NCBI RefSeq assembly: GCF_016786355.1
Contig: NZ_JADWYX010000031.1
Span: 1-64,000, forward strand
Direction of reading: 5' to 3'
DNA length: 64,000 nt
Source of the DNA: Frankia sp. AgB1.9
GTDB taxonomy: Bacteria > Actinomycetota > Actinomycetes > Frankiales > Frankiaceae
Each line of letters starts with the position of its first letter. Position 1 is the first letter of the stretch. The notes under the pieces are model-generated. The model ran no database searches, was not told the DNA's origin, and saw only the letters and a program-made list of their open reading frames with translations. This document shows, in pieces, positions 6,314 through 55,466 of the stretch. A program made the translations under genes and the position numbers.

Positions 6314-6380
6314 CCTGCGCAGACGCCGATCATCCGGCTGGCTGGGCAGGCTGCTGCACCTTGATCGAGAACTGCGCAGG
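6314..6380. repeat. Family B palindromic element, copy 1
   Basis: 67 bp. The left arm is CCTGCGCAGACGCCGATCAT and the right arm TTGATCGAGAACTGCGCAGG. The outer 9 bp pair perfectly and both arms carry GATC. The two GATC sites start at 6328 and 6363, 35 bp apart, as in every other family B copy. It lies after the 3' end of the AbiEi/DUF559 gene. Confidence 0.7.
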
Positions 6381-6418
6381 AAAAAAGTGGACAAATTGGG
6401 GTACGCAACGCCGTTTTG

Positions 6419-6485
6419 CCTGCGCAACGAGTGATCAAGGCGTCCCGGTGGGGTGTGAGGCCGCCTTGATCACTCGTTGCGCAGG
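6419..6485. repeat. Family B palindromic element, copy 2 (perfect 24-bp arms)
   Basis: 67 bp. The left arm starts CCTGCGCAACGAGTGATCAA and the right arm ends TTGATCACTCGTTGCGCAGG; the complementarity is perfect over 24 bp (6419-6442 with 6462-6485) around a 19-bp loop. GATC sites start at 6433 and 6468. It could fold as a strong hairpin and act as a terminator for the upstream gene, though no T-tract follows. Confidence 0.8.
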
Positions 6486-6604
6486 GGAATTGTGAGCAGT
6501 GGGGGCTGGGGTGGCGCCCCGATCGAGCCTGATGTGGCACCCCCGCTGCGCGCCGGATGGTCGAGGTGGTCGGAGCTTGAGTGTGAGGGAGAAGGTGGTG
6601 GAAT

Positions 6605-6620
6605 CTTACGTTGACGTGAG
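6605..6620. promoter_or_regulatory. Possible MerR-type operator upstream of the MFS gene
   Basis: CTTACG-TTGA-CGTGAG is an inverted repeat with one mismatch. It overlaps a TTGACG hexamer and lies 24 bp before the MFS start. MerR regulators often bind such GTTGACGT-containing palindromes, and a MerR gene lies directly downstream of the MFS gene. The regulator-site link is inferred. Confidence 0.4.
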
Positions 6621-6644
6621 ATAGAGGTAGTAGCGTCGGGGATC

Positions 6645-8555
6645 GTGACGACGTCGGAGAGCGCAGCGCTGAACGGGACCGGGTCACGACCGCGGGGTGC
6701 GGCGGTGCCTCCGGGGGACGCGGAGGTCCGCGGCGACGGCTACAAGTGGACCGTGCTGATCAACACGACCATCGGCATCCTGATGGCCACGGTGAACGCG
6801 TCGATCCTGCTGATCGCGTTGCCGGACATCTTTCGCGGGATCGGCATCGATCCGCTGGCTCCGGGCAACACCTCGTACTTCCTGTGGATCCTGATGGGCT
6901 TCATGCTCGTCACGTCGGTGCTGGTGGTGAGCCTCGGCCGGGTCGGCGACATGTTCGGCCGGGTGCGCTGCTACAACCTCGGCTTCGCGGTGTTCACGGC
7001 CGCGTCGATCCTGCTGGCCGTCACCTGGATGCACGGCGACGCGGCGGCACTGTGGATCATCATTGTCCGGGTCGTGCAGGGCGTCGGCGGCGCGATGCTG
7101 ATGGCCAACTCCTCGGCGATCATCACGGACGCCTTCCCGGCGAACGAGCGGGGCTTCGCCATCGGCGTCAACGGTGTCGCGGCGATCTCGGGGTCGTTCC
7201 TCGGGCTGCTGATCGGCGGTCTGCTCGCCCCGATCGAATGGCACCTGGTCTTCATCGTCTCGGTGCCGTTCGGCGTCTTCGGCACCGTGTGGGCGTACGT
7301 GAAGCTCAAGGACAACGGCGTGCGGACCCCGGCGAAGATCGACTGGTGGGGCAACCTGACCTTCGCCGCCGGGCTCATCTCGGTGCTGGTCGGCATCGTC
7401 TACGGCCTGCAGCCCTACGGCGGCCACACGATGGGCTGGACGAACCCGTGGGTGCTCACGGCGATGATCGGCGGCGTCGCCGTGCTGGTCCTGTTCTGCT
7501 TCATCGAGACCCGGGTCAGCGACCCGATGTTCGCCCTGGAGCTTTTCAAGAACCGTGGCTTCACCATGGGCGTGATCGCCGGCCTGCTGGGGGCGCTCGC
7601 CCGTGGTGGCCTGCAGTTCATGTTGATCATCTGGTTGCAGGGCATCTGGCTGCCGCTGCACGGCTACAGCTTCGAGCGGACGCCGCTGTGGGCTGGCATC
7701 TACATGATCCCGATGACGGTCGGCTTCCTGATCTCCGGGCCGATCGCCGGCCGGCTTTCCGACCGCTACGGTGCCCGGCCCTTCGCGACCGTCGGCATGC
7801 TCGTCAGCGCGGCCGGCTTCGGGATCTTCGACGTCATCCCGATCGACTTCAACTACATCGGGTTCGCGCTCGCCCTGATGCTCATCGGGATGTCGATGGG
7901 CCTGTTCGCGGCCCCGAACACCGCGGCCGTGATGAACGGGCTGCCGCCGAACCGGCGGGGCGCCGGCGCCGGCATGCTCAACACGTTCCAGAACTCCGCG
8001 CAGGTGCTCTCGATCGGCGTCTTCTTCACCGTGATCGGCCTGGGGCTCGCGGCCTCGCTGCCGCACACGCTGTTCTCGGGTCTGGCCGCCCAGGGGGTCC
8101 CGGCCGCGAAGGCACACGAGATCGCCGGCATCCCGCCGGTCGGCAGCCTCTTCGCCGCGTTCCTCGGCTACAACCCGATCCAGCAGCTGATCGGCTCGTC
8201 GACGCTGTCGACCCTGCCGCCGGACCGGGCCAGCTACCTGACCGGCCAGGAGTTCTTCCCGCACCTGATCTCCGGTCCGTTCGGCGACGGACTGCACCTC
8301 GCGTTCGCGTTCGCGGCGCTCGCCTGCGTGATCGGCGCGGTGGTCTCCTGGCTGCGCGGCGGCCAGGACCAGCCCGTGCACCGCTCGCTCGCCGTGGAGA
8401 CGGCCGCGGGCCTGGCCGGCGCGGGTGACGCCGCCGCTGCGGAGGCCGGGGCCGGTGGGGTGGGCGGCATCGACCCGGCCGAGGCGACGGACCCGGCCGA
8501 GGCGACGGACGCGGTCGGCGCGCTGGGGCTGCCGGCCGCGAACCCGGCGACATGA
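6645..8555 (+). CDS. MFS drug/proton antiporter, DHA2 (EmrB/QacA) family
   Basis: A 636-residue inner-membrane exporter with about 14 hydrophobic helices. It opens WTVLINTTIGILMATVNASI and carries GRVGDMFGRVR (motif A) after helix 2, RVVQGVGGAML, and GSFLGLLIGGLL (motif C, typical of antiporters). The last ~70 residues are an Ala/Gly/Glu-rich cytoplasmic tail with a PAEATDPAEATDA repeat. The start is GTG at 6645. The downstream MerR gene probably regulates it. The substrate is unknown; drug or metabolite export is the family role. Confidence 0.9.
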   Translation: MTTSESAALNGTGSRPRGAAVPPGDAEVRGDGYKWTVLINTTIGILMATVNASILLIALPDIFRGIGIDPLAPGNTSYFLWILMGFMLVTSVLVVSLGRVGDMFGRVRCYNLGFAVFTAASILLAVTWMHGDAAALWIIIVRVVQGVGGAMLMANSSAIITDAFPANERGFAIGVNGVAAISGSFLGLLIGGLLAPIEWHLVFIVSVPFGVFGTVWAYVKLKDNGVRTPAKIDWWGNLTFAAGLISVLVGIVYGLQPYGGHTMGWTNPWVLTAMIGGVAVLVLFCFIETRVSDPMFALELFKNRGFTMGVIAGLLGALARGGLQFMLIIWLQGIWLPLHGYSFERTPLWAGIYMIPMTVGFLISGPIAGRLSDRYGARPFATVGMLVSAAGFGIFDVIPIDFNYIGFALALMLIGMSMGLFAAPNTAAVMNGLPPNRRGAGAGMLNTFQNSAQVLSIGVFFTVIGLGLAASLPHTLFSGLAAQGVPAAKAHEIAGIPPVGSLFAAFLGYNPIQQLIGSSTLSTLPPDRASYLTGQEFFPHLISGPFGDGLHLAFAFAALACVIGAVVSWLRGGQDQPVHRSLAVETAAGLAGAGDAAAAEAGAGGVGGIDPAEATDPAEATDAVGALGLPAANPAT

Positions 8556-8609
8556 CGACGAACCGGGCGGCGACATGACGACGAACCGGGCGACATGACG
8601 ACCGGGCGG
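8546..8609. repeat. Short tandem repeat across the MFS stop codon
   Basis: GGCGACATGACGACGAACCG occurs at 8546, 8569 and 8589; the last copy is truncated to GGCGACATGACGACCGGG. Units are 20-23 bp. The first copy contains the TGA stop of the MFS gene, so unit loss or gain would not change the protein. The rest of the gap to 8794 shows no gene. Confidence 0.7.
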
Positions 8610-8794
8610 CGCCAGCCGGCGTTACCGCGCCGGCGCCCAGCGCTCGCCGAGGCCGCTCGCCGGGCGGTCAGGCCGACCAACCGCCCGACGCCCGGCGAGG
8701 CCGCTCGCCTGCTGAGCGGGCCTGGCAGGCCGACATGCGGCCCCCGGCGGCGCACAGCGCGCGCTCAGCGCCACCCGCTGGGAATACTTAGGTC

Positions 8795-9355
8795 ATGACG
8801 GACAGTGGGACGATCGCCGCCGTTCGCGGCGACCAGGCCGGCGGCCCGGCCTTAGCCGGGAGTCCCGGTGCAGATACCTCTGCCGCGGCCGATGGCGCGA
8901 CCAACCCCGCCGCCGTCGACGCGGCCGCGGAGCGGGCCCTGCTCGCGATCGGGCCGGCGTCCCGCGAGGTGGGCGTCTCGGTGCGCTCGCTGCGGTACTA
9001 CGAGGAGATGGGCCTGCTCACCCCATCGGGGCGCACCAGCGGCGGGAACCGGCTCTACGGCCCGGACGACCTGGCCCGCGTCCGCCGCATCCGGGAACTG
9101 CAGCAGCTGCTCGGCTTCAACCTGGACGAGGTGCGCGACATCCTCGGCCACGAGGACCGGCTGGCCCGGGTCCGCCAGGACTGGGCGGTGGCGAGCACCG
9201 AGGACCGGGTCCGCCTGCTGGACGAGGCCCGCGAGGTGTACCTGAACCTGCGCGACCAGGTCGAAGGGAAGATCAAGGGCCTGGTCTCGTTCCGCGACGA
9301 GCTGGATGCCCGCGTTGCCCGCAACGACCGGCTCCGCGAGACCCTCCCCGGCTGA
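8795..9355 (+). CDS. MerR-family transcriptional regulator
   Basis: 186 residues. After ~48 low-complexity residues comes a MerR winged helix: SREVGVSVRSLRYYEEMGLL, RTSGGNRLYGPDDLARVRRI, and LLGFNLDEVRDIL. A coiled-coil dimerisation helix and a short C-terminal part follow. There is no cysteine cluster, so a metal sensor is unlikely; a small-molecule sensor is more plausible. A TACTTA -10-like hexamer ends 4 bp before the ATG, which suggests a leaderless transcript. Its position directly after the MFS exporter suggests that it controls export. Confidence 0.9.
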   Translation: MTDSGTIAAVRGDQAGGPALAGSPGADTSAAADGATNPAAVDAAAERALLAIGPASREVGVSVRSLRYYEEMGLLTPSGRTSGGNRLYGPDDLARVRRIRELQQLLGFNLDEVRDILGHEDRLARVRQDWAVASTEDRVRLLDEAREVYLNLRDQVEGKIKGLVSFRDELDARVARNDRLRETLPG

Positions 9356-9563
9356 CAGGCGGGCAGACCGGGTCCGCGGCCCGGCCCGGAACCTCAGACC
9401 AGCGGAAATTCCGTGGACGTCACGGGCCGGGTGTCGTGGACTTGGGACGTCCCGCAACCACCCGCCGCCCAGTGTGAGCGACAGATGCCCGGACCGGACC
9501 CGACGGGGTCGGCCCGGTCTGTGTCGCGCTCCTCGGTGGCCGACGCCGGCTCAGGAGGCTCGC

Positions 9564-10349
9564 GTGACCGCCCCGACGGCCGGCGACTTCGACTACGAGA
9601 CCCATGGCGGCGGCTACGCGCTGCGCCGGCGTACCGACCCGCGCATCGCCGCGTTCGTGCATGCCGCCCTGGGTGACGCGTGCACGGTCGTCAACGTGGG
9701 AGCGGGGGCCGGCTCCTACGAGCCGCTGGGCCGGTGCGTCGTCGCGGTCGAGCCGTCGGCGCGGATGCGGGCGCAGCGCCTCGCCGGCCAGGCCCAGGTC
9801 GTCGCCGCGGTCGCGGAGGCGCTGCCGTTCGCCGACGGTGCGTTCGCCGCGGCGATGGCGACGAACACGGTCCATCAGTGGGCCGACCTGGAGCGCGGCC
9901 TGGGCGAGCTGCGCCGGGTCAGCCGCGGCCCGGTCGTCCTGCTCACCTTCGACGGCGACGCCTTCGACCGGAACTGGCTCGTGGAGTACGTCCCCGAGCT
10001 GGTCGCCTACGAGCAGCGCCGGATGCCCTCGATCGGGCGCATCGTGGCAGCCCTCGGCGGTACGACGGTTGTCACGCCCGTGCCGGTACCGGCCGACTGT
10101 TGCGACGGCTTCATCGAGGCCTTCCTCGGCCGGCCCGAATGCTTCCTCGACCCGATGATCCGGCGGGCCCAGTCCCCGTGGGTCTTCGTCGGGCCCGAGA
10201 TCGTGGCCCGTGGCGTGGCCCAGCTGCGCGCCGACCTGGTGTCCGGCGCCTGGGACCGCCGCCACGCCGCGCTGCGCCTCCAGAACGAGTTCACCGGCGC
10301 CCTGCGCCTGATCACCGCCTACCCCGCGAGTACGCCCGCACGTCCATGA
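9564..10349 (+). CDS. Class I SAM-dependent methyltransferase
   Basis: 261 residues of the Methyltransf_11 type. Motif I is VVNVGAGAGSYEPLG; the acidic residue ending strand 2 is VVAVEPS; LPFADGAFAAAMATNTVHQW is the post-II/III region. A perfect AGGAGG lies 5 nt before GTG 9564, which sets the start; the longer open frame from 9306 overlaps the MerR gene and is rejected. The substrate is unknown. The stop codon TGA (10347-10349) lies inside the family A repeat. Confidence 0.88.
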   Translation: MTAPTAGDFDYETHGGGYALRRRTDPRIAAFVHAALGDACTVVNVGAGAGSYEPLGRCVVAVEPSARMRAQRLAGQAQVVAAVAEALPFADGAFAAAMATNTVHQWADLERGLGELRRVSRGPVVLLTFDGDAFDRNWLVEYVPELVAYEQRRMPSIGRIVAALGGTTVVTPVPVPADCCDGFIEAFLGRPECFLDPMIRRAQSPWVFVGPEIVARGVAQLRADLVSGAWDRRHAALRLQNEFTGALRLITAYPASTPARP

Positions 10350-10421
10350 TCGCCGTTTTGGCCCTCGCGCGGTCGTGATTCCACCCTGATCGCAGCCACC
10401 GGAGGGCCAGGGCGGCGATCA
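10346..10421. repeat. Family A palindromic element, copy 1
   Basis: 76 bp. The left arm ATGATCGCCGTTTTGGCCCTC pairs with GAGGGCCAGGGCGGCGATCA (17 of 20 positions). GATC sites start at 10348 and 10417, 69 bp apart. It lies between two convergent genes and supplies the methyltransferase stop codon. Confidence 0.85.
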
Positions 10422-10432
10422 GGACACGCAGG

Positions 10433-11209
10433 TCAGTCCATGCCGCGGCGTCCCGGCGTCCAGAACGGGTGGGTGAGGACGTTGCGGCGCGGCCAGCCGC
10501 GCTCCTCGACCAGATGGCGGCGCGCGCTCTGGATCGCGCGGGCCTCGCCGGCCAGGTAGGCGATGCCGGGCTCGGCCGGCAGCGGCAGGTCGGCGAGCGC
10601 GGCCGGCAGCCGTGGCGAGTCGGCGGCTGGCGCGCCCTCGCGGTAGACGAAGGTCAGCTCGCCGCCGCGCGGCAGCGGCAGCGCGTCGCCCGGGGTGTCG
10701 TGCTCGACCGCCCCGAACACGGGCGCCGTCGTGGGCGGGGCCCGCAGGATCGCGCCGAAGGCGACCGCGGCGGTGTCGTCCCCGGCGAACAGGTGGTACG
10801 GCGCGTCGGGCTGGGCCACGAGGTGCCCCTCGGGGCCTTTGACCAGGACGCCCCGGCCGGCGGTGGCCTCGCGGGCCCACCGGGCGCCGGGACCGTCGCC
10901 GCCGTGGTCGTAGACGGCGAGGTCGAGCCGGCCGTCGGGGGCGTAGTCCCACACCGAGTAGGTGCGCTTGAGGTCGCGCGGGCTGCGCAGCCAGGAGCCG
11001 GGCACCGAGGGGTCGGCGAGCACGACGCTCACGTGCTGGCCGGGCGTCCAGTCCAGGCCGGCGAGGGCGTCGCCGGTCAGCGTGATCCGGCGGGTGCGGG
11101 CGGCCAGCTGCTCGACGGCCGCCACCTGCGCCCGGTGTAGCACGCGCGCCAGGGGATTGCGCGACGAGCGGCCGGGCCGGGCCGTCGGGGCGGGGGTTGT
11201 CACGTCCAT
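10433..11209 (-). CDS. Siderophore-interacting protein (ViuB/SIP-type ferric reductase)
   Basis: 258 residues. FAD-binding part: TRRITLTGDALAGLDWTPGQHVSV and RDLKRTYSVWDY (FAD contact RxYS/T). NAD(P)H part: HLFAGDDTAAVAFGAIL and PGIAYLAGEARAIQSARRHLVEERG. The family releases iron from ferric siderophores in the cytoplasm by reduction. Start ATG 11209 is preceded by CCGGAGGAGT. It is divergent from an RHH/HTH regulator across a palindrome-rich promoter. No siderophore synthesis or uptake gene lies nearby. Confidence 0.92.
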   Translation of the reverse strand: MDVTTPAPTARPGRSSRNPLARVLHRAQVAAVEQLAARTRRITLTGDALAGLDWTPGQHVSVVLADPSVPGSWLRSPRDLKRTYSVWDYAPDGRLDLAVYDHGGDGPGARWAREATAGRGVLVKGPEGHLVAQPDAPYHLFAGDDTAAVAFGAILRAPPTTAPVFGAVEHDTPGDALPLPRGGELTFVYREGAPAADSPRLPAALADLPLPAEPGIAYLAGEARAIQSARRHLVEERGWPRRNVLTHPFWTPGRRGMD

Positions 11210-11235
11210 GACTCCTCCGGAGGTACGGATCCTGC

Positions 11236-11259
11236 TAGCTAGCTATACGATAGCTATCG
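11236..11259. promoter_or_regulatory. Nested palindromes in a divergent promoter
   Basis: The segment holds TAGCTAT-ACG-ATAGCTA (perfect, 11240-11256) and the overlapping perfect 12-mer CGATAGCTATCG (11248-11259), in a locally A/T-richer patch. It lies between the siderophore-interacting protein gene (minus) and the RHH/HTH gene (plus) and could serve both promoters. It does not match the usual DtxR/IdeR iron box. Confidence 0.5.
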
Positions 11260-11328
11260 ATCGAGTCGGTCCGTGCGGGGGTTGCCCGCATTCGGGGCCG
11301 CTTCGCACGGAAACCTCAGGAGGCCGGG

Positions 11329-11850
11329 ATGACCCCGTCCGAACCGACCAGGGCCGTCTACGTCCGGATGCCGGACAAGCTCGCGCAGAAGCTCGACAAG
11401 GCCGCCGAACGCTTCGGTGTCAGCAAGCGCGACCTGCTCGCCACGCTGGTCTCCGACCACCTCGACATCGAGGGCGACGAGATCGTCTTTCGCCCGCACG
11501 GCCGGGACGGCAACAGCCAGGGCAGGCCCGAGGGCGCGCCCCGGCCCCCGCGTCCGGGTGACCTGTGGCGCAAGCGTTCGAGTGCCGACGACCCGGACGC
11601 AGAAGCGGCCGGGCCGAAGGTGCGGATGAGCAAGGCCGCGGCGCCCGAGCCGGAGGCGCCCGCCGCGCCGTTGAGCGAGGTGCTGACGCTCGAGGAGGCC
11701 GCGGAGCTGGTGCGCGTTCCCGTCGACGACCTACGAACGCTGGTCGAGTCCGGCGAGCTTCCGGCTCGCCGCATCGGCGAGAGCTGGCGCCTCACCCGCA
11801 CCGCGGTTCTCGCCTGGCTGGCCGGCCCAGGCCCGGCCCCGGCCGGCTGA
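11329..11850 (+). CDS. RHH plus excisionase-type HTH DNA-binding protein
   Basis: 173 residues with two DNA-binding parts joined by a Pro/Ala/Asp linker. Residues ~8-45 (RAVYVRMPDKLAQKLDKAAERFGVSKRDLLATLVSDHL) look like a ribbon-helix-helix. Residues ~115-165 (LTLEEAAELVRVPVDDLRTLVESGELPARRIGESWRLTRTAVLAWL) are an HTH_17/excisionase-type domain. The linker contains DLWRKRSSADDP. AGGAGG precedes the ATG. It may regulate the divergent siderophore-interacting gene (inference). Confidence 0.8.
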   Translation: MTPSEPTRAVYVRMPDKLAQKLDKAAERFGVSKRDLLATLVSDHLDIEGDEIVFRPHGRDGNSQGRPEGAPRPPRPGDLWRKRSSADDPDAEAAGPKVRMSKAAAPEPEAPAAPLSEVLTLEEAAELVRVPVDDLRTLVESGELPARRIGESWRLTRTAVLAWLAGPGPAPAG

Positions 11851-11863
11851 CCCGGCTCGCGCG

Positions 11864-12202
11864 TCAGCCCAGCAGGATGGCGACGAGTCCGGTGACGCAC
11901 AGCGCGGCCGTCAGGGCGGCGGTGACGGCCAGGGCGCGGTGGTCCTCGGGGGAGCGGTCGAGGCGGATCGCGGCCACGGTCGAGCGGTAGCGCAGCTGGG
12001 CCCGGCCGACGAGCAGGGCGGTGACGACCAGCGCGATCAGTCCGGGGACGACGAGCGGCGTCCGGCCGTCGAGGGCGGCGTGCAGCAGCAGGGCGCCGTT
12101 GGCGGCGAAGCCGAGGCCGGTGCGCTGCCAGGCGAGATAGGTGCGCTCGCTCTGCATCCCGGAGTCGAGGATCTCGGCGGGGTGCTCCGGCCGGTCGGTC
12201 AT
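11864..12202 (-). CDS. DUF202 small membrane protein
   Basis: 112 residues with three hydrophobic segments. The family hallmark is at the start: ERTYLAWQRTGLGFAANGALL. The function of DUF202/YidH-like proteins is not settled. Its ATG overlaps the TGA of the upstream DUF202 gene by 4 nt (12199-12202), so the two are translated from one mRNA and may form a hetero-oligomer. Confidence 0.85.
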   Translation of the reverse strand: MTDRPEHPAEILDSGMQSERTYLAWQRTGLGFAANGALLLHAALDGRTPLVVPGLIALVVTALLVGRAQLRYRSTVAAIRLDRSPEDHRALAVTAALTAALCVTGLVAILLG

Positions 12203-12606
12203 CGGCGGCCCCGGGCCACGTCGACCAGGATGAACGCCATGGCGCTGATCATGACGACGGAGATGCCCAGGCCGACCAGGCGGGGGAGCAGCGACGGGGG
12301 CAGCGGCGCCCCTTCGCGGATCGCGCGCTCGCGGCGTTCCCAGCGGGTGTAGCTGGTCGCGGCGATCAGGATCGCCAGCACGATCAGCGCGATCCCGAGA
12401 ATGTGACGGGCCCAGCCGATCGAGAAGCTCGGCACGATCTGGACGACCGCGATCCCACCGGCCAACAGCGCCAGCGCGGTGCGGATCCAGGCCAGAAAGG
12501 TGCGTTCGTTCGCCAGGCTGAACCGATAGTCAGGTTCAGTGCCGACGGTGTGCACGGGCGGCTTGCCGCCGCCGGTCTGTCCGGCGTGCCGCCGCAACCA
12601 GTCCAC
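12199..12606 (-). CDS. DUF202/YidH-type membrane protein
   Basis: 135 residues. The cytoplasmic N-terminus is followed by the DUF202 motif DYRFSLANERTFLAWIRTALALLAGGIAV and three predicted membrane helices. It is the longer member of the tandem pair, which is a common two-gene arrangement in Actinobacteria. No biochemical role can be assigned from sequence. Confidence 0.87.
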   Translation of the reverse strand: MDWLRRHAGQTGGGKPPVHTVGTEPDYRFSLANERTFLAWIRTALALLAGGIAVVQIVPSFSIGWARHILGIALIVLAILIAATSYTRWERRERAIREGAPLPPSLLPRLVGLGISVVMISAMAFILVDVARGRR

Positions 12607-12727
12607 GGCGTCAACCTAGCCGGGTCGTTTCGGGCCCGCCTTGGCGAACTTTTCACGTCGGCCAGGTGGGATTTCGGGCATCGCGCCAAGTCCCGGCTTC
12701 CAGGACGGTGCTTCGGGACCGGCGCGG

Positions 12728-14542
12728 CTACAGCCAGGCGGGGTCGGTGTCGAGGGTGGTGCGGTCGAGGCTCGCGAGCAGGTCGAGCTGCGGCGCGGTC
12801 CTGGGCAGCTCGTATCGGTAGAAGAAGCGGGCGGCCGCGCGCTTGCCGTCATAGAACGGCCCCTGCTTGCCGGCGGCGGCGAGCGCCTGCTCCAGCCATA
12901 GCCAGGCGATCACGGCGTGGCCGACCGCCTCGAGGTAGACGCTCGCGTTCGCCAGCGTGACGTCGGGGTCGCCGGCGCCCCACAGCTTCGCCGTGACCTC
13001 GACGACGCGCTCGACGGTCGAGCCGAGCAGGCCGGCGAGCTCGGCCAGCTCGCCGCCCGCGGCCGTCGCCGTGGCCACGGTCGCGTTCATCGCCTCGGCC
13101 AGCGCGGCCAGTCCCGCCCCGCCCCGCAGCGCCACCTTGCGTCCCAGCAGGTCCAGGCCCTGAATGCCGTGCGTGCCCTCATGGATCGGGTTCAGCCGGT
13201 TGTCGCGGAAGTGCAGCTCGACGTCGTACTCGCGGGTGTAGCCGTAGCCGCCGTGGACCTGGATCGCGAGGTTGTTGGCCTCCAGGCACCACTGCGACGG
13301 CCAGCTCTTCACGATCGGGGTGAGCGTGTCCAGCAGCAGGTGGGCCCGGTCGCGCTCCTGCTCCGTCGGCGCGGTCCGCTCGTCGTCCAGCAGCTTCCCG
13401 GCGTAGAGGACGAGCGCGAGCGCCCCCTCCACGTAGGACTTCTGCGCGAGCAGCATCCGCCGCACGTCCGCGTGCTCGATGATCGGGATCTGCGGGGCAC
13501 GGGCGTCCTTGCCGGCCGGCGGGCGGCCCTGCGGGCGGTCCTTGGCGTACTTGAGCGACTTCAGGTAGCCGGTGTAGCCGAGCGCCATCGCGCCCGCGCC
13601 GACCTTGATCCGGGCCTCGTTCATCATCGTGAACATGTACGAAAGGCCCTGGTGCGGCTGGCCGACCAGGTAGCCGACCGCGCCCGGCTCGCCGCCGGGG
13701 GTGTACTTGCCCTCGCCGAAGTTCAGCAGCGTGTTGGTGGTGCCGCGGTAGCCCATCTTGTGGTTCAGGCCGGCGAGGACCACGTCGTTGCGCTCGCCGA
13801 CGGAGCCGTCCGCGTTGACCAGGAACTTCGGGACGACGAACAGACTGATGCCCTTGACGCCGGCCGGGCCGCCGGGGATCTTCGCCAGGACCAGATGGAC
13901 GATGTTCTCACCCAGCTCGTGGTCGCCGGCCGAGATCCACATCTTGTTGCCGAAGACCCGGTAGCTGCCGTCCGGGCGTGGCTCGGCCCTGGTGATGATG
14001 TCCGAAAGCGACGACCCGGCCTGCGGCTCCGACAGGCACATCGTGCCGTGGAAGCGGCCGTCGAGCTGCGGGCGGACGTAGGCGTCGATCTGCTCGGGGC
14101 TGCCGTGCGCGAGCAGCAGGTTCGAGTTGCCGATCGTCAGGAACGGATAGCTGAACGTCGAGACGTTGGCCGCCATCAGCCACGAGAAGCAGGCGTCCGC
14201 GACCACGACGGGCAGCTGCGCGCCGCCGACCTCGGCGTCCATCGTGGCGGCGATCAGCCCGGTCTTCGCGAACACGTCGACGGCCGCCCCGATCTCGGGG
14301 ATCAGGTGCACCCGCTCGCCGTCGAACGTCGGCTCGTTCAGGTCCGAGCGGCGCAGGTGCGGGTAGAAGTGCTCGGTCGCGACCTGCTCGGCGAGGTCAA
14401 GGAGCGCGTCAAACGTCTCCCGGTCGTGCTCGGCGAACCGTTCCCGCGCCGTCAGCGCCGTCACGTCGAGCCACTCGTACAGCAGGAAGTCCAGATCCCG
14501 CCGCGAGAAGATCACTGACTCGGCACTGCCACCTGGCGGCAT
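12728..14542 (-). CDS. Acyl-CoA dehydrogenase
   Basis: 604 residues, the long class with an extra C-terminal domain. N-terminal helical domain, then the FAD/substrate strand CLSEPQAGSSLSDI, then VHGGYGYTREYDVELHFRD and NPIHEGTHGIQGLDLLGRKV, where the Glu in HEGT is the expected catalytic base. FAD-dependent alpha-beta desaturation of an acyl-CoA is the family reaction; chain length cannot be told. ATG 14542 is chosen because GAGGGG lies 6 nt upstream; a TTG at 14548 is too close to that site. There is no electron-transfer flavoprotein gene nearby. Confidence 0.92.
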   Translation of the reverse strand: MPPGGSAESVIFSRRDLDFLLYEWLDVTALTARERFAEHDRETFDALLDLAEQVATEHFYPHLRRSDLNEPTFDGERVHLIPEIGAAVDVFAKTGLIAATMDAEVGGAQLPVVVADACFSWLMAANVSTFSYPFLTIGNSNLLLAHGSPEQIDAYVRPQLDGRFHGTMCLSEPQAGSSLSDIITRAEPRPDGSYRVFGNKMWISAGDHELGENIVHLVLAKIPGGPAGVKGISLFVVPKFLVNADGSVGERNDVVLAGLNHKMGYRGTTNTLLNFGEGKYTPGGEPGAVGYLVGQPHQGLSYMFTMMNEARIKVGAGAMALGYTGYLKSLKYAKDRPQGRPPAGKDARAPQIPIIEHADVRRMLLAQKSYVEGALALVLYAGKLLDDERTAPTEQERDRAHLLLDTLTPIVKSWPSQWCLEANNLAIQVHGGYGYTREYDVELHFRDNRLNPIHEGTHGIQGLDLLGRKVALRGGAGLAALAEAMNATVATATAAGGELAELAGLLGSTVERVVEVTAKLWGAGDPDVTLANASVYLEAVGHAVIAWLWLEQALAAAGKQGPFYDGKRAAARFFYRYELPRTAPQLDLLASLDRTTLDTDPAWL

Positions 14543-14668
14543 GGACAACCCCTCGCGGCACTCGAAGACGGCCCGGACAGCCGGTCGGCCGGCCCAGCGC
14601 TCGGCCGCCGCCCGGGACCAGTTTTATCCAGTATCCAATGATGTGCCCCGCTGCCGCGACCGCTGGGG

Positions 14669-14896
14669 CTAGGCCCTGACCTCGACCGTTCTGATCGTTC
14701 GCCAGGACACGACGACCTGGCCGCCGCCGTCGAGGGGGAGTGCCGTCACCTCGCTCTGGGCGATCCACCCCTGAATCGTCTGGGTCAGCGCGGCGAGCTG
14801 TGCCTTCCAGGGCTCGGCGCTGTCCAGGAGGCCGCTGATGTCGATCCGGTGCTCGATCGTGCCGTCGATGATGAGGGAGACGCCCACGGTTGCCAC
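14669..14896 (-). CDS. Small conserved-type hypothetical protein
   Basis: 75 residues starting MATVGVSLIIDGTIEHRIDI and ending VVVSWRTIRTVEVRA. It is beta-rich with one helix and has no recognised domain. It begins 4 bp after the stop of the gltX-like gene on the same strand, so it is probably the second gene of that operon. No function is proposed. Confidence 0.6.
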   Translation of the reverse strand: MATVGVSLIIDGTIEHRIDISGLLDSAEPWKAQLAALTQTIQGWIAQSEVTALPLDGGGQVVVSWRTIRTVEVRA

Positions 14897-14900
14897 GGCT

Positions 14901-16580
14901 TCAGCCTGCCAGGACCGCGCCGAGGCGGCGGCGGGTTTCGGGCTCGCCCAGGGCCTGGGTGACGAGGTGGAACGCCGGGCTGCGGTTCGAGCCGGTGAGC
15001 AGGACGCGGAAGACCTGCGCCGCCTCCTTCGTCGAGCCGACGAACGAGTCCTTGTCGGCCTTGTACTCCTTCGGGCTACCGGCGAACCTGTTCGCGACCG
15101 CGGCGGCCCGGATCTGCCCGAACCATTCGTCGCTGTCGTCCACGTGCCGGTAGTCGCGCAGGAAGTCCTCGCACAGCGCGCGGACCACGTCCGCCGGCAG
15201 GGCGCCGAGCCGCGGGTCGGCCGGGTCGGTGACCGGCTCGAAGAGCGCCGCGAAGAAGTAGCCGTAGACCGAACGGAAGTCCGACCACTTGCGCAGGTCC
15301 TTGCGGGGGTTCTCGACGCCGGTCCGCTCGATGTCCAGGGCGCGCAGCGCGACCCGCGGCTCGGCGCGGACCGCCGAAGCGAGCTCCGTGTCGTGGACGT
15401 CGGCCCAGCCGAGCACCTCGTCCACGATCGTCTGGCCGGACAGGGTCGCGATGTGGTCGGCCGCGATGTCCTCCAGCTTGACCAGGTCGACCAGGGCGCC
15501 TGAGACGCCGGCCTCCGAGAGGCGCAGCGGCTCGGCGAGCGCCTGGTCCATCGGCAGCACGGCCAGCCGGCCGTTGATCAGCCCGCGCAGGTAGTAGAGG
15601 ACGGCGTCCGCCGGGTAGCCGGCGGCGATGTAGAACTCGACCGACGCCTCCGGGTCCTTGCGCTTGGACAGCTTCCGCTTGCTCGACCCGTCCCCCTTGA
15701 GCAGCGGCGCGATGTGGGCGTACGGGATCCGCTCGAAGCCGGCCGCGTCGAACAGCTGCAGATGCAGGGGCACCGACGACAGCCACTCGTCGGCGCGGAT
15801 CACGTGGGTGACCCGCATCAGGTGGTCGTCGACGGCGTGCGCGAAGTGGTAGGTCGGCAGCCGCAGCGGGCTGTCCGAGGACTTCAGCAGGACGACGTCG
15901 TTGCGGTTGGCGTCCGCGGTGATCTCGCCGCGGATCAGGTCGGTGTAGGTGACCCTGGAGCCGCCGGGGGAGCGGAACCGGACGACGTACGGCCGGCCCG
16001 CCGCGAGCGCCTCCCGGACCTGCTCGTCCGGGGCGTCGCGCCACAGCGCCCACCGGGCGTAGTACCCGGTCGGCACCTTCGCGGCCCGCTGCTGCTCGGC
16101 CGACGCGGCCAGCTCCTCCTTGGTGGCGAAGCACAGGTACGCCCGGCCGTCCCGCAGGAACTCGCGGGCGTACGAGAGGTAGATCTCGGCCCGTTCGGAC
16201 TGGGTGTACGGGCCGTAGGCGCCCTTCTCCGGCGTCTCGTCGGCGTGGACCCCGAAGTAGGTGAACGCCGCGTCGAACTGCAGGAGCGCGCCCTCGACGG
16301 TCCTGGCCTGGTCGGTGTCCTCGACCCGGATGAAGTAGGCGCCGCCGGAGTGCCGGGCGAGGTCCTTGTCGAGCATCGCCACGTAGACGCCGCCGAGGTG
16401 GGCGGCGCCGGTCGGGCTCGGCGAGAACCGGGTGACCATCGCGCCCGCGGGCAGGTCCCGGGGCGGGTAGCGCTGCTCCCAGTACTCCGGACCGGGCAGA
16501 TCGCCGTCCGGCCGGTCCGCGGAAGCCGGTCCGGCCGGGACCCTGGGGAACAGGGCGTCGATCTCGTCCCGCTCAAGCAT
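14901..16580 (-). CDS. gltX: Glutamyl-tRNA synthetase, long clostridial-like type
   Basis: 559 residues, a class I synthetase that attaches Glu to tRNA. The HIGH-like motif is FSPSPTGAAHLGG (residues 52-64), followed by FIRVEDTDQAR; IRADEWLSSVPLH precedes the KMSKS-like KLSKR (303-307). Unlike the usual ~480-residue actinobacterial enzyme it has a ~48-residue N-terminal leader (ALFPRV, YWEQRYPPRDLPAGAMVTRF) and a GYYARWALWRDA segment, which resemble the long GluRS of Clostridia. It may be a second, acquired copy; the normal gltX would lie elsewhere. GGAAGGA precedes the ATG. A self-resistance or specialised role is possible but unsupported. Confidence 0.87.
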   Translation of the reverse strand: MLERDEIDALFPRVPAGPASADRPDGDLPGPEYWEQRYPPRDLPAGAMVTRFSPSPTGAAHLGGVYVAMLDKDLARHSGGAYFIRVEDTDQARTVEGALLQFDAAFTYFGVHADETPEKGAYGPYTQSERAEIYLSYAREFLRDGRAYLCFATKEELAASAEQQRAAKVPTGYYARWALWRDAPDEQVREALAAGRPYVVRFRSPGGSRVTYTDLIRGEITADANRNDVVLLKSSDSPLRLPTYHFAHAVDDHLMRVTHVIRADEWLSSVPLHLQLFDAAGFERIPYAHIAPLLKGDGSSKRKLSKRKDPEASVEFYIAAGYPADAVLYYLRGLINGRLAVLPMDQALAEPLRLSEAGVSGALVDLVKLEDIAADHIATLSGQTIVDEVLGWADVHDTELASAVRAEPRVALRALDIERTGVENPRKDLRKWSDFRSVYGYFFAALFEPVTDPADPRLGALPADVVRALCEDFLRDYRHVDDSDEWFGQIRAAAVANRFAGSPKEYKADKDSFVGSTKEAAQVFRVLLTGSNRSPAFHLVTQALGEPETRRRLGAVLAG

Positions 16581-16968
16581 GACGGGTCCTTCCAGGGGCC
16601 GGTTGTCGTCCGGGCGTGTTCGGGATCGTTCTCGTCCGAACCCGCCTGGTCCCCGCCGAGCGGCCTACCGGCCCGCGTCGGCGCTGAACGTTCGGATGGG
16701 TGGGGCTCGGCGGATCAGTCCTGGCCACCGCGGACCCATGTCGATGTTAGTACGCGGCGCCGCGACCCCGGCGGCCCGCGCGTCCCGGCCGCGCCCAGCC
16801 GCTCGGGCTGAGGAGGGGCCCCGGCCGCGGGCTGGCCCGGCTCACGCTGCCAGCCCGGCACTTTTGGTGATCGTCCTGTCGCGTGGCCTGGCCGGTCACG
16901 GGCCCGCGGGTGTCCCGATTCGACCGAGCGGTCCAACTGCGCCGAGGACCCTCGTAAACTGCCCCTTT
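16581..16968. other. Intergenic region between divergent gltX-like and paaX-like genes
   Basis: 388 bp with no credible small gene. No T-box (no TGGNACCGCG on the minus strand) was found upstream of gltX. A TAAACT hexamer at 16955-16960 lies 8 bp before the PaaX GTG and fits a -10 element of a leaderless transcript. Confidence 0.45.
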
Positions 16969-17976
16969 GTGACCTCGCCGCGCCGGACAATCGGGCCGGA
17001 CCACCTTCCGGCCCATCCGCTGGTACCCCCACAGCGGCCAGCCCTGCGCGCGCTGCCCACGCACCCCGAGGTCGACCTACCGCGCACCCAGGAAGGCCCG
17101 CAGCCGCAGCGGCTGTTGACCACCCTGCTCGGCGACTACTGGTACGGCCGGCGCGAGCACCTGCCCTCCGCCGCCCTCGTCGCGCTGCTGGGCGACTTCG
17201 GCGTGACCACCGTCGGCGCCCGCGCGGCACTGTCCAGGCTGGCCCGGCGCGGTGTCCTGGAGTCCTCCAAGGTCGGTCGCCACACCTACTACGGGCTGAC
17301 CGCCGCCGCGTCCGAGGTCGTCCTGGAGAACGTGCACCGGCTCCGGTCCTTCGGTGAGCGGCACGAGCCGTGGGATGGCCGGTGGACCGTCGCGGCCTTC
17401 TCGCTGCCCGAGGATCTGCGCGACGTCCGGCACACCGTGCGCAGCCGGCTGCGCTGGCTCGGGTTCGCCCCGCTCTACGACGGCATGTGGGTCAGTCCCC
17501 GCCCGGTCGCGGAGCCCGCCCGCCGGGTGTTCGCCGAGCTGGGGGTGCTGGCGTCCACCGTGCTGACCACGACCGTCGACGCCCGCCGCAGTGACCCGCG
17601 CCCGCCGATGGCCGCCTGGGACCTCTCCGAGCTCCGTGGCCAGTACGAGGAGTTCGTCGCGACCACCGCCCCGCTGCGAGACCAGGTCCGCGCCGGCGGC
17701 GTCGCCGGCGCGCCGGCCCTGGTCGCCAGGACCGCGCTGCTCAACGCCTGGTGGCGCTTCCCCAGCCTCGACCCGGACCTCCCGCTCGACCTGCTGCCCG
17801 AGCGCTGGCCGCGCCGTGGCGCCCGCGACCTGTTCGCCGAGACCTACGACGCTCTGGGCCCGCTGGCCGTCGAGCGGTTCCGCGCGGTCGTCGGCGAGTC
17901 GGCGCCAGAGCTGGCCGCGCTGGCCGGCTACCAGCGTTCCGAAGGCTCCACCGGCGGCCCATCGGCCCGGCGCTAG
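16969..17976 (+). CDS. PaaX-family transcriptional regulator
   Basis: 335 residues. The N-terminal winged helix (LTTLLGDYWYGRREHLPSAALVALLGDFGVTTVGARAALSRLARRGVLESSKVGRHTYYGLT) is followed by the central PaaX domain (WDGRWTVAAFSLPEDLRDVRHTVRSRLRWLGFAPLYDGMWVSP) and a C-terminal domain. PaaX repressors of this kind respond to aryl-CoA esters in phenylacetate degradation, but no paa gene is in the window. GTG 16969 is chosen from the -10-like hexamer 8 bp upstream; the open frame extends further but the extension looks non-coding. Confidence 0.85.
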   Translation: MTSPRRTIGPDHLPAHPLVPPQRPALRALPTHPEVDLPRTQEGPQPQRLLTTLLGDYWYGRREHLPSAALVALLGDFGVTTVGARAALSRLARRGVLESSKVGRHTYYGLTAAASEVVLENVHRLRSFGERHEPWDGRWTVAAFSLPEDLRDVRHTVRSRLRWLGFAPLYDGMWVSPRPVAEPARRVFAELGVLASTVLTTTVDARRSDPRPPMAAWDLSELRGQYEEFVATTAPLRDQVRAGGVAGAPALVARTALLNAWWRFPSLDPDLPLDLLPERWPRRGARDLFAETYDALGPLAVERFRAVVGESAPELAALAGYQRSEGSTGGPSARR

Positions 17977-18032
17977 CCGCTTTCCGCAGTCAGGGTGGCC
18001 AGTTCGCCCTGCTGATCATCTTCTGTCGACAG

Positions 18033-18106
18033 TGATCGCGATTTGGACCCTCCGGTGGTCGTGGAAACGCCCTGATCACAGCCGTGGGAGGGCCAAAAAG
18101 CGATCA
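18033..18106. repeat. Family A palindromic element, copy 2
   Basis: 74 bp. TGATCGCGATTTGGACCCTC pairs with GAGGGCCAAAAAGCGATCA. GATC sites start at 18034 and 18102 (68 bp). It lies between the paaX-like gene and rarA, 57 bp after the paaX stop. Confidence 0.8.
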
Positions 18107-18232
18107 CCGGCCAGTAGGCGGTGGTTCCGCGGGCGCCGCTCCTGTGGCAGCGGCCGTCGGCGAACCGCGTCGAGCAGGTCGGCGATGCAGGTTGCCAGCA
18201 CCGCCTGGTGACCGTCGCCGTACGGTTGGTGG

Positions 18233-20128
18233 GTGAGCCTGTTCGACACGGTTGCTCCCTTCCCCGACGCCTCACCAGGCGGCGCGCCGGGTGCCGGCCC
18301 CACCGCGCCTGCCTCGGCCGGCGGTGGCGCACCGGCGGGCCAGGCTGCCGGGTCCCGCCCGGCTGGGCAGCCTGGCGGACCGGCCCCGCTTCCCGCGCCG
18401 ACAGGTCCACTCGCCGACCGGCTGCGCCCGCGCGGGCTCGACGAGCTCGTCGGCCAGCGGCACCTGCTCGGCCCCGGCAGCCCGCTGCGCCGGCTCGTCG
18501 AGGGCGGCGGGACGACCTCGGTCGTGCTGTGGGGGCCGCCGGGCACCGGGAAGACGACGCTCGCGCACATCGTGTCGCGCGCGACCGGCCGGCGGTTCCG
18601 TGAGCTCTCGGCGGTCACGGCCGGCGTCAAGGACGTCCGGGCGGTGATCGACGAGGCGCGGGAGGCGCTGTCGAGCAGCCGGTCGAACCAGTCGCGACGG
18701 ATGGTCCGCGAGCCCGGCCTGTTCAGTGACGCGACCCAGCCGGCCGGCGGGGAGGTGCCTGTCGACCTGCGGACCGTGCTGTTCATCGACGAGGTGCACC
18801 GGTTCACCCGGACCCAGCAGGACGCGCTGCTGCCGGCCGTCGAGCGGGGCTGGGTCACGCTGGTCGCCGCGACCACGGAGAACCCGTCGTTCTCGGTGGT
18901 GGCCCCGCTGCTGTCGCGCTCGCTGCTGTTCACGCTCACGCCGCTGACCGACGACGACATCCGCGCCCTGGTCCGCCGCGCTCTGGTCGACCCGCGCGGC
19001 TACGGCGGCCGGGTACGGATCGCCGACGACGCCCTGGAGCACCTGGTCCGGCTGGCCGGTGGCGACGCCCGCCGCGCGCTCACGGCGCTGGAGGCGAGCG
19101 CCGAGGCGGCCCTCGCGGTCGCGCAGACCGCGGCACCCTCGCTGGCCACGGCGCCGACGCCGTCCGCGCAGGCGGCTGCCGAGGGCGGCTCGCCGGGCAA
19201 GGTCGAGCTGGGCCCGGCCGTCGCCGGGGCGGGAACCGACACCGCGGCTCCGCCGGCCGCGAGCCGGGCGACGAGCGACCTGACTGCGGCCGAGCCGCCG
19301 CCGGCCGATCCGACCGTCGCTGACCTGACCACAGCTGACCTGACCACGGCCGATCCGACCAGGGCCGACCTGACCACGGCCGATCCGGCCGTCGACGGCG
19401 CGGCTCCCGAGGCGCCGGAGCAGGCGCAGGCGCCGACGGCTGCGGTGGACCTCGCCCTGCTGGAGCAGTCGATCAACCGTGCGGCCGTCCGCTACGACCG
19501 GGACGGCGACCAGCACTACGACGTCGTCAGCGCCTTCATCAAGTCGATGCGCGGCGGCGATGCCGACGCCTCGCTGCACTATCTGGCCCGAATGATCGAG
19601 GCGGGCGAGGACCCGCGCTTCATCGCCCGCCGCATGATCATCCTGGCCAGCGAGGACATCGGCATGGCCGACCCGGGCGCGCTCGGTGTCGCCGTCTCGG
19701 CCGCCCAGGCGCTGGAGCTGATCGGCCTGCCGGAGGCCCGGCTCGCCCTCGCCCAGGCTGTGATTCACCTCGCGCTTGCCCCGAAGTCCAACGCGGTGAT
19801 CCGGGCGATGGACGCGGCCACCGCCGACGTCCGCGCCGGGAAGGCCGGGCCCGTTCCGCGCCACCTGCGCGACGCGCACTATCAGGGTGCCCGCCGGCTC
19901 GGTCACGGCGACGGCTACCGCTACCCGCACGACTATCCCGAAGGTGTGGCCCGCCAGCAGTACCCGCCGGACGAGCTGGTCGGCGTCGACTACTACCGCC
20001 CGGGTGACCTCGGCTTCGAGCGCCGGGCCGCCGCGCGGGCGGCGGAGCTGCGCGCGGTGCTGCGGGCCTCGACGTCCGCCGACGCCCCGCCTGACCCCCT
20101 TGACGGGGCTCGCGGGGAGGGGTCCTGA
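18233..20128 (+). CDS. rarA: Replication-associated recombination protein RarA (MgsA/WRNIP1 family)
   Basis: 631 residues, a clamp-loader-like AAA+ ATPase acting at stalled forks. After a Pro/Gly-rich leader: [18 protein letters not shown], Walker [14 protein letters not shown], Walker [10 protein letters not shown], sensor 1 [12 protein letters not shown], and [12 protein letters not shown]. The C-terminal MgsA domain ([27 protein letters not shown]) is intact. Between them is a ~100-residue insertion (about 300-402) of Ala/Thr/Asp repeats such as [20 protein letters not shown]. The usual length is ~450, so leader and insertion explain the excess. Start is GTG 18233. Confidence 0.93.
19311..19395 (+). 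repeat. In-frame degenerate repeat in rarA
   Basis: A ~15-nt unit close to GACCTGACCACGGCC / GATCCGACC is repeated about six times and encodes [17 protein letters not shown] and ADLTTADP. It lies in the linker between the AAA+ lid and the MgsA domain and looks like replication-slippage expansion tolerated in a disordered linker. Confidence 0.65.
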
Positions 20129-48893: not shown

Positions 48894-48932
48894 CAGGCGG
48901 CGCCGAGCCGCCCGCGGGGGGCGATCCCCGCA

Positions 48933-49096: not shown

Positions 49097-49381
49097 TTGT
49101 CCGGTACGCCGGCCCAGCCCGAGGGCATCACCAACCCGCCGATCGACGAGCTGCTCGAGGCCACTGACTCGAAGTACAGCCTGGTGATCTACGCGGCCAA
49201 GCGCGCCCGTCAGATCAACGCCTACTACTCCCAGCTCGGCGAGGGCCTGCTGGAGTACGTCGGCCCGCTGGTGGAGCCGACCAGCGCCCAGGAGAAGCCG
49301 CTGTCGATCGCGCTGCGCGAGATCAACGCGGGGCTGCTCACGCACGAGGCGGCTCCCGAGTCGCTGCCGCCCGTCTCCTGA
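49097..49381 (+). CDS. rpoZ: RNA polymerase omega subunit
   Basis: 94 residues. [40 protein letters not shown] is the omega signature; [14 protein letters not shown] follows. The start is TTG 49097, with GGAAGGA upstream. It is 2 bp from coaBC. Confidence 0.95.
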
Positions 49382-49383
49382 CG

Positions 49384-50646: not shown

Positions 50647-50763
50647 GCGGCGCTGGGCGCGAGAGTGAAAGCCTGGCCACGTCCGCCGGTAGCGCTCGAT
50701 GCTCCGCGACGCGCATCGGTAAACTTCGTCGGAATCTGTCGGATCTTTCAGGGAGACCACCAA

Positions 50764-51960: not shown

Positions 51961-52015
51961 TCGGGACGCGCCACCCGCCGCCCCTGACAGGGCTAGCCCC
52001 GATTCGGTCTCCTCA

Positions 52016-52090
52016 TGATCGCCGTTTCGGCCCTCTGCTGGTTGTATCCGGGCGTGTTTTACAACCACTAGAGGGCCAGAACGGCAGTCA
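52016..52090. repeat. Family A palindromic element, copy 4
   Basis: 75 bp. TGATCGCCGTTTCGGCCCTC pairs with GAGGGCCAGAACGGCAGTCA, and an inner stem TGGTTGTA / TACAACCA is perfect. The right GATC is changed to AGTC, so one arm has lost the motif. It lies between metK and priA. Confidence 0.82.
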
Positions 52091-52221
52091 AGGCGGCTGG
52101 CCGACCTTGTCAGGGAGCGGCGAATCGCTCCGACCTCGGCCCGGTCCCACATCGTGGGGCCGGGCCGTCGTACGTCCGGGTGGTGGTAGGCCTGTCTCAG
52201 GCGGCTGGTACGAATGCGGGC

Positions 52222-54696: not shown

Positions 54697-54755
54697 CCTC
54701 GGCTGACCTCGGCCCGAGCCAAGCCAGGCCCCGTAACCGAAACCAAGCCGGCCCC

Positions 54756-54787
54756 TTAGTTTCAGATATCGCGCAAGTGAAACTAGG
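54756..54787 (+). terminator. Hairpin after priA
   Basis: TAGTTTCA (54757-54764) and TGAAACTA (54778-54785) form a perfect 8-bp stem, flanked by CC/GG, around a 13-nt loop. It lies 60 bp after the priA stop. The A/T-rich stem is unusual for this genome and may be a terminator or an operator. Between it and priA the 10-mer CTCGGCTGAC is repeated across the stop codon. Confidence 0.5.
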
Positions 54788-54934
54788 ACGGGAGTGATCT
54801 CGGGTCGTGGGTGCCGTCCGCGACGGCGTCGCAGGCCTGGGTGGCGATCGCCTGTCTCGGGGAGGTGGCCGCCTGGTCAGCGGTTGTGTGGCGTGTCAGT
54901 TCTGGGAGGTCGGCCTTTCGCGGCTGCCGTTTCC

Positions 54935-55001
54935 CCTGCGCAATTGGCGATCATCGCGCCCTGGCACCGTCGAGGTTGTTCATGATCGCGGGTTGGGCAG
55001 G
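54935..55001. repeat. Family B palindromic element, copy 3
   Basis: 67 bp. CCTGCGCAATTGGCGATCAT faces ATGATCGCGGGTTGGGCAGG. GATC sites start at 54949 and 54984 (35 bp). The complementarity extends outward (TTTCC / GGAAA). Confidence 0.75.
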
Positions 55002-55040
55002 GGAAATCGTCGCCCGATGCCCCGTTTTGTCGTATTTATT

Positions 55041-55107
55041 CCTGCACATCTGGCGATCATGACTGTTACCTGCCGCCGGACAGTTCGAAGATCGCCAGAT
55101 GCGCAGG
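55041..55107. repeat. Family B palindromic element, copy 4
   Basis: 67 bp. CCTGCACATCTGGCGATCAT faces GATCGCCAGATGCGCAGG. GATC sites start at 55055 and 55090 (35 bp). Inner GACTGT / ACAGTT adds to the stem. Confidence 0.8.
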
Positions 55108-55197
55108 CGAACCGGGCGCGCGGACCCCGACCGCCCGACTGACCGACGACCCGCCCACCGCGCAACCGCCACCCAGGGCGCCCCGGCGCCCGAGGTA

Positions 55198-55284
55198 TTC
55201 CGCAGGGCGGCTGATCTCCGCGTTCCGCAGGGCGGCTGATCTGCGCGTTCCGCGGGACGGTGGATCTGCGCGTTCCGCGGCTCC
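55198..55284. repeat. 25-bp tandem repeat
   Basis: Units start at 55198, 55223, 55248 and 55273, exactly 25 bp apart: TTCCGCAGGGCGGCTGATCT plus SCGCG, the third unit diverged, the fourth cut to 12 bp. It lies between family B copies 4 and 5. Each unit has one GATC. Confidence 0.82.
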
Positions 55285-55286
55285 TT

Positions 55287-55371
55287 GACGGTTTCGATGC
55301 CAGGCCGGCGATCATCGGCGGTCGGTGGCCCGGTCACCCATCATGATCGCCAGTCTGGTATCGAAACCGTC
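55287..55371. repeat. Family B palindromic element, copy 5
   Basis: The 67-bp frame is 55296-55362 (GATGCCAGGCCGGCGATCAT facing ATGATCGCCAGTCTGGTATC), with GATC starts at 55310 and 55345 (35 bp). Pairing continues 9 bp outward as GACGGTTTC / GAAACCGTC. The outer arm differs from copies 1-4. Confidence 0.8.
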
Positions 55372-55399
55372 GCCCTGCGCCCGGTATGCGCCTTTTATC

Positions 55400-55466
55400 C
55401 ATACCAGGTCTGCGATCTTGTAGGTCGTGTCGGCCGGACATCGCCGAAGATCCACGACTGGGTATG
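55400..55466. repeat. Family B palindromic element, copy 6
   Basis: 67 bp. CATACCAGGTCTGCGATCTT faces AAGATCCACGACTGGGTATG. GATC sites start at 55414 and 55449 (35 bp). The outer arm is of the same class as copy 5. Confidence 0.72.

What the first reader, a model, noticed from the sequence alone, without database searches (positions are those of the whole stretch)
6314..55466. Family B: 67-bp palindromes with two GATC sites exactly 35 bp apart
Six elements (6314-6380, 6419-6485, 54935-55001, 55041-55107, 55296-55362, 55400-55466) share one geometry: GATC starts 14 bp from the left edge, a second GATC exactly 35 bp later, total 67 bp, with complementary outer arms. The outer arm differs between copies (CCTGCGCA in four, GATGCC/CATACC in two), yet left and right arms match within each copy; one has a perfect 24-bp arm. 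Constant spacing with covarying arms suggests a mobile or protein-bound palindrome (REP/MITE-like) rather than chance or a plain terminator. All copies lie downstream of gene 3' ends.
Basis: seen in the sequence. Interest (0 to 1): 0.8.

Follow-up and report, generated by a model that had tools for sequence, protein, structure and literature searches.

The report
Phased four-arm palindromic repeat in Frankia
The six palindromes are halves of three copies of one larger, regularly spaced DNA element scattered between genes across one group of Frankia-like soil bacteria; its geometry looks like a docking site for an unknown DNA-binding protein, and a mobile element sometimes uses it as a landing site.

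Summary
The six 67-bp palindromes form three pairs, each one directional element of about 194 bp (window 6306-6499 +, 54921-55115 -, 55282-55474 -). The family was found only in one genus: 37 end-to-end model matches of 95 bits or more here, at least 59 in one complete relative (capped list), none in 33 genomes outside the genus. GATC spacings are quantised: of 324 hairpins, 305 at 33-36, 16 at 24-26 or 14-15, 3 elsewhere. This, no G-U excess and no strand bias favour a double-stranded protein site over an RNA. An 8-base word recurs in all four arms, but by subfamily: a nearest-relative control removes the per-copy signal. In 21 of 25 orthologous pairs counted, elements keep 84% identity and flanks 70%; gapped bases are 1.0 and 11.1 per 100. 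The RAYT idea fails. In three genomes a serine recombinase gene lies beside an element broken at this word; in G002 the inserted DNA is AICE-like. The binding protein is unknown; helical phasing and a protein site are inferences. A MITE origin stays open.

The parts
6306..6499 (+). Element copy 1 (word type CCTGCGCA), between an AbiEi_4 protein gene (5080-6210 +) and an MFS transporter gene (6645-8555 +)
   Evidence: R1 model 183.6 bits, rank 1; a training sequence of the model; neighbours by Pfam
6314..6380 (+). Hairpin H1 of copy 1; GATC at 6328 and 6363
6381..6418 (+). Spacer of copy 1 with GGACAAATTGGGG
6419..6485 (+). Hairpin H2 of copy 1, perfect 24-bp arm; GATC at 6433 and 6468
54921..55115 (-). 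Element copy 2, convergent intergenic region between priA and rsmB
   Evidence: R1 model 179.7 bits, rank 2; training sequence; PriA_3primeBD and RsmB/F by Pfam
55041..55107 (-). Hairpin H1 of copy 2
54935..55001 (-). Hairpin H2 of copy 2
55282..55474 (-). Element copy 3 (word type CATACC), same orientation as copy 2
   Evidence: R1 model 142.5 bits, rank 20; training sequence
55400..55466 (-). Hairpin H1 of copy 3
55296..55362 (-). Hairpin H2 of copy 3

Best explanation
A genus-specific dispersed double-stranded DNA site. Each copy holds four half-sites, 5'-CNYRCNCA-N6-GATC, arranged as two inverted pairs at about 0, 35, 105 and 140 bp. Some copies, above all in G003, have a further outer inverted pair (CTTCCCGTGGATC / GATCCACGGGAAG). 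I propose that an unidentified protein binds the half-sites together. This would explain why each subfamily has the same word in all four arms, why spacing changes come in about one helical turn, and why retained copies stay intact at orthologous sites. The role would be chromosome organisation or a boundary between convergent genes, by analogy with BIMEs. Shown: geometry, copy number, distribution, spacing classes, intergenic position, better preservation than flanks. Inferred: helical phasing as the cause, the protein, the assembly, the role.
For: Spacings of 162 of 167 copies: d1+d3 = 324 values, 305 at 33-36, 16 at 24-26 or 14-15, 3 others (18 and 21 from the truncated copy L131, and 39); d2 at 67-72 in 160 of 162 (L131). 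Word types by subfamily agree in all four arms, paired or not. Paired arms: 49 doubly changed cells against 22.9 shuffled (0 of 500), and 0-12 when slid by 1-3 columns. Preservation: 21 of 25 orthologous pairs counted, element more identical than flank in 17, equal in 1, lower in 3. No orientation bias among 40 tandem-gene copies (18 same, 22 opposite). GU is below permutation expectation (118 vs 153 in H1; 289 vs 327 in H2).
Against: No binding protein was identified. The per-copy agreement of the word (z 4.8-7.6 in G000 and G001, 2.3-4.1 in G002, -0.1 to 2.5 in G003) disappears when the partner arm is taken from the nearest relative (t -1.1 to 2.4), so it reflects a few subfamilies, not copy-by-copy coevolution; the same holds for the 6-nt spacer. 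In G003 the H1 right arm agrees poorly with the others (0.65-0.69). Short-spacing copies are partly related; I estimate about seven separate changes. The script allowed d1 12-45 and d2 62-78 and penalised departures from 35 and 70 (not for d3), and copies were found with a model built from 35/36 spacings. Four orthologous pairs were dropped for offset; in three of them the element is no more conserved than the flank (0.59/0.60, 0.77/0.78, 0.68/0.72; the fourth 0.54/0.44). Pairs share loci and were found through model hits, which favours retained copies.
Confidence: 0.43

Rival explanations
1. A MITE: a non-autonomous DNA transposon whose half-sites are binding sites of a lost or unseen transposase; word types are transposase specificities carried by subfamilies.
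For: Interspersed, tens of copies per genome, outer inverted repeats in some copies, several word types side by side that follow subfamily, presence differs between species, shortened-spacing copies of 174 and 164 bp at several loci.
Against: No convincing direct repeat at the ends, ends ill-defined, no clean empty site, retained copies better preserved than flanks.
Confidence: 0.33
2. A structured RNA or bidirectional terminator hairpin pair.
For: Long stems with compensatory changes; more often between convergent genes than gaps without an element.
Against: No GU excess, no orientation bias to genes, no Rfam family over its gathering score on the elements searched, no T-run terminator, spacing steps near 10.
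Confidence: 0.1
3. Family of attachment sites for serine-recombinase mobile elements: they persist because integrases use them.
For: Recombinase directly beside a broken element in G000, G002, G003; in G002 the two halves lie 16.3 kb apart around FtsK- and RepSA-type genes.
Against: Few recombinases against dozens of sites; none at 1e-20 in G001, G006 or G007; two G005 relatives, one partial and one with a stop, show only a short GATCTGTAC likeness.
Confidence: 0.07

Closest known systems
REP/BIME elements with RAYT
   Same: Dispersed intergenic palindromes in alternating orientation, bound by proteins and used as targets by insertion sequences (PMC2817692, PMC1525189: title and start of abstract in the listing)
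   Different: 67-bp hairpins in a fixed 194-bp unit, no GTAG tag, no Y1 transposase in bearing genomes
MITEs such as ERIC or Correia elements (recalled)
   Same: 100-250 bp, palindromic, intergenic, tens of copies
   Different: Two inner inverted pairs with spacing steps of about 10 bp; no target duplication found
AICE attachment sites of Frankia (PMC3218068, passages seen)
   Same: Integration target of an AICE-like element
   Different: For its six Frankia strains that paper reports tRNA 3' ends, and a gene for the one AICE with a serine recombinase; here the target is a dispersed palindrome

Membership tests
REP mobilised by RAYT | Y1 (PF01797) transposase in the genome | tested here: not met
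   0 of 7 element-bearing genomes at E 0.001; only G007, without elements; several assemblies are drafts
REP mobilised by RAYT | GTAG or CGTC tag at the stem foot | tested here: not met
   GTAG/CTAC beside 2 of 324 hairpins, CGTC/GACG beside 17 of 324, no shuffled control
MITE | terminal inverted repeats | tested here: inconclusive
   outer motif within 4 mismatches: left 72, right 69 of 167 (reversed motif 20 and 27); both sides in 39 of 167, 23 of them among the 40 G003 copies, not all at the usual position
MITE | target-site duplication | tested here: inconclusive
   strongest signals lie inside the arms; best with a right word outside the element z 4.9, matches 0.33 against 0.30, out of about 13,000 combinations
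MITE | autonomous partner | not tested
   only Y1 transposases were searched
Intrinsic terminator | stem-loop followed by T-run | tested here: not met
   0 in both window regions, but the scan allows loops of 3-8 only
Known structured RNA | Rfam match | tested here: not met
   whole window: only an FMN riboswitch at 61348-61479; six loci: two tRNAs in L007 and matches below gathering score, one (mir-9242, 29.2 of 62 bits) over an element
Serine-recombinase attB | element split by an integrated element carrying the recombinase | tested here: met
   both halves seen in G002; recombinase-side part only in G000 and G003, far ends not found; 3 of 5 close recombinases

The most novel reading that the evidence does not exclude
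A previously undescribed chromosome-organising system of one actinobacterial genus: a helix-phased array of four to six GATC half-sites, dozens per genome, read by a multimeric protein whose word specificity differs between subfamilies and species, possibly tuned by the Dam-family methylase found in three of the genomes, and exploited by serine recombinases whose junctions follow the local word.
Probability: 0.12. Interest if true: 0.85.

Novelty: new variant of a known kind. Interest (0 to 1): 0.6.

Why it matters
REP-type dispersed palindromes are usually linked to RAYT transposases. Here a family of dozens of copies lacks that enzyme, is better preserved than its surroundings, and carries a geometry that makes direct predictions about a DNA-binding protein and its helical register. 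If the protein exists, it would be a handle on chromosome organisation in Frankia-like bacteria. The serine-recombinase junctions also show a mobile element that uses a dispersed repeat, not a tRNA gene, as its landing site.

Tried and rejected
RAYT/IS200: rejected. Known RNA families and T-run terminators: none on the elements. RNA-level pairing: no GU excess. Copy-by-copy coevolution of the arms: seen against random partners, gone against the nearest relative; I lowered the protein-site odds from 0.5 to 0.43 and raised MITE from 0.28 to 0.33 for this. Dam methylation as the reason for GATC: kept only as a lead. TIGR00571 is over its cut-off in G000-G002 but also in G009, G018 and G021, where no elements were found; it is below cut-off in G003 and absent from G005 and G006, which bear elements. 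Empty sites: L124 against L170 differ by 347 bp, the element plus about 74 bp and 90 bp; L102 against G001 by about 850 bp; neither is at the element's ends. L103 gave only one flank. Distribution outside the genus: the fixed pattern gave 71 stretches in the collection of 84,980 genomes; of 76 scored matches I printed the best 30, and the 13 most palindromic are 11 of Frankia nepalensis CN7 and 2 of Pseudofrankia sp. BMG5.36; rows 14-30 look like chance or tandem repeats. A twelfth CN7 stretch (L282) did not rank among the 30. Records near the window's genome may be left out by the tool. Literature: the rows shown by searches (several lists cut) held no description of this element; I saw passages of PMC4752239 (no Frankia in its main text) and PMC3218068. 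Rows dropped before counts: 5 of 167 copies without four GATC-like sites; 4 of 25 orthologous pairs; reverse-strand duplicates of model hits; the 75.6-bit match at C178 and weaker G000 matches.

Full report
What is there. Each of the six palindromes has two GATC exactly 35 bp apart. Chance is excluded: 6 of 7 GATC-N31-GATC in the window have complementary arms, against a mean of 0.01 in 100 shuffles. The palindromes come in pairs 104-106 bp apart, and an alignment of 17 copies shows one directional element: hairpin H1, spacer (GATAAA, GGGACAAA, TTGGGG, CGCCG), hairpin H2. A covariance model of 16 copies, the three window copies among them, gives 37 end-to-end matches of 95 bits or more in the genome; the window copies rank 1, 2 and 20. 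A few of the 37 are shortened.

Where it occurs. Of 41 genomes, 7 had matches at E 0.01, all of the same genus of eight; G007 had none and G004 one weak match. For the complete genome G001 I copied 59 distinct places from that listing; only 62 candidates per genome were scored, so this is a lower bound. A fixed-geometry pattern in a collection of 84,980 genomes gave clearly palindromic matches only in Frankia nepalensis CN7 and Pseudofrankia sp. BMG5.36 among the 30 rows printed. G001 and G002 match in length the Frankia strains EuI1c and DC12 as I recall them. In G001, 41 of the 59 copies lie in the outer half of the record (0-2.2 and 6.6-8.8 Mb), 35 of 52 after collapsing neighbours (p 0.018); the origin position was not tested.

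Anatomy. Of 324 hairpins in 162 measurable copies (of 167), GATC spacing is 33-36 in 305, 24-26 or 14-15 in 16, other in 3. The classes differ by about one helical turn. Some short copies are related (L114/L159 are orthologous, L119/L247 too), so I estimate about seven separate changes. Copies were found with a model of 35/36 spacing, and the script favoured 35 and 70 for d1 and d2, not for d3. The arm outside GATC holds an 8-base word: commonest are CCTGCGCA (G000, G002), CCTGCGCA and CATACCCA (G001), CGCACACA (G003), CATACCCG or CATACCCA (G005, G006); CNYRCNCA is my summary. In G000 and G001 all four arms of a copy agree in the word far beyond random partners, including arms that do not pair. 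A control run at the end shows that the arms of the nearest relative agree as well. The word is therefore a property of subfamilies: each has one word in four places, but few independent changes stand behind it. The 6-base stretch between word and GATC behaves alike. At the locus of copy 1 the G001 orthologue carries the CATACC type while G000 and G002 carry CCTGCGCA; replacement by another subfamily is as possible as change in place. An outer inverted pair is seen on both sides in 39 of 167 copies, 23 of them in G003.

Preservation and context. In 21 of 25 orthologous pairs, element identity is 0.837 and flank identity 0.696; gapped bases are 1.0 and 11.1 per 100 aligned. The element is more identical in 17, equal in 1, lower in 3; in the four dropped pairs it is lower in three. 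Flanks of fixed length inflate their gaps, pairs share loci, and all were found through model hits. None of 104 copies overlaps a called gene by more than 60 bp; 45 of 103 lie between convergent genes against 47 of 263 gaps without an element.

What it is not. No Y1/RAYT transposase in bearing genomes, no GTAG tag (2 of 324), no Rfam family over gathering score on the elements searched, no T-run terminator, no GU excess and no strand bias. A MITE origin stays possible: there are outer inverted repeats, subfamilies and presence differences, but no convincing duplications or clean empty sites.

A mobile element that lands on it. A half element in the window's genome (C83) lies directly upstream of a 503-aa serine recombinase (Resolvase, Recombinase, and a zinc ribbon below cut-off). 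Relatives of about 75-83% identity are in G002, G003 and twice in G005, there one partial and one with a stop. In G002 the element is split at the H1 right word, its halves 16.3 kb apart, with RepSA and FtsK-type genes between, as in AICEs. In G003 the break is at the H2 left word. For G000 and G003 the far ends were not found and the cargo was not examined. The two G005 copies share only GATCTGTAC at the junction, so this is 3 of 5. Junctions read GCAC where the local word is TGCGCA and GTAC where it is CGTACACA; that the integrase follows the word is inference.

Mechanism and standing. The best reading is an array of half-sites for an unknown multimeric protein, 0.43 after the last control. 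The MITE rival gets 0.33, RNA or terminator 0.1, recombinase-maintained sites 0.07. It resembles a BIME in place and form, but it is not a RAYT-linked REP, because two defining features were tested and not met.

Noticed in passing
L352 (G000:C83) 4887-6525; L350 (G002) 2170-18639: Serine-recombinase element integrated into the palindromic element at its arm word; RepSA and FtsK-type genes inside the G002 one
   Followed up: partly
G000:C11:65509-66258; G001:C1:8635786-8636541; G002:C1:3558742-3559494: Dam-family adenine methylase over the TIGR00571 cut-off; neighbours within about 1.5 kb were read by eye only, no restriction gene recognised
   Followed up: partly
window 61348-61479 +: FMN riboswitch (RF00050, 92.6 bits)
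   Followed up: no
window 55190-55290; L142, L146, L138, L148, L162: Short tandem repeats with GCGGAACGCGGAGATC-like units beside several elements
   Followed up: no
L124 and L170, right of the CATACC copy: A smaller hairpin TTCCCATCGATC..GATCCACGGGAA like the outer arms
   Followed up: no
L126 and L156, just left of the element: A long palindrome GTGGATACGCC..GGCGTATCCAC at orthologous loci
   Followed up: no
G007:C610:9267-9632: Only Y1 transposase found in the genus, in the genome without elements
   Followed up: no
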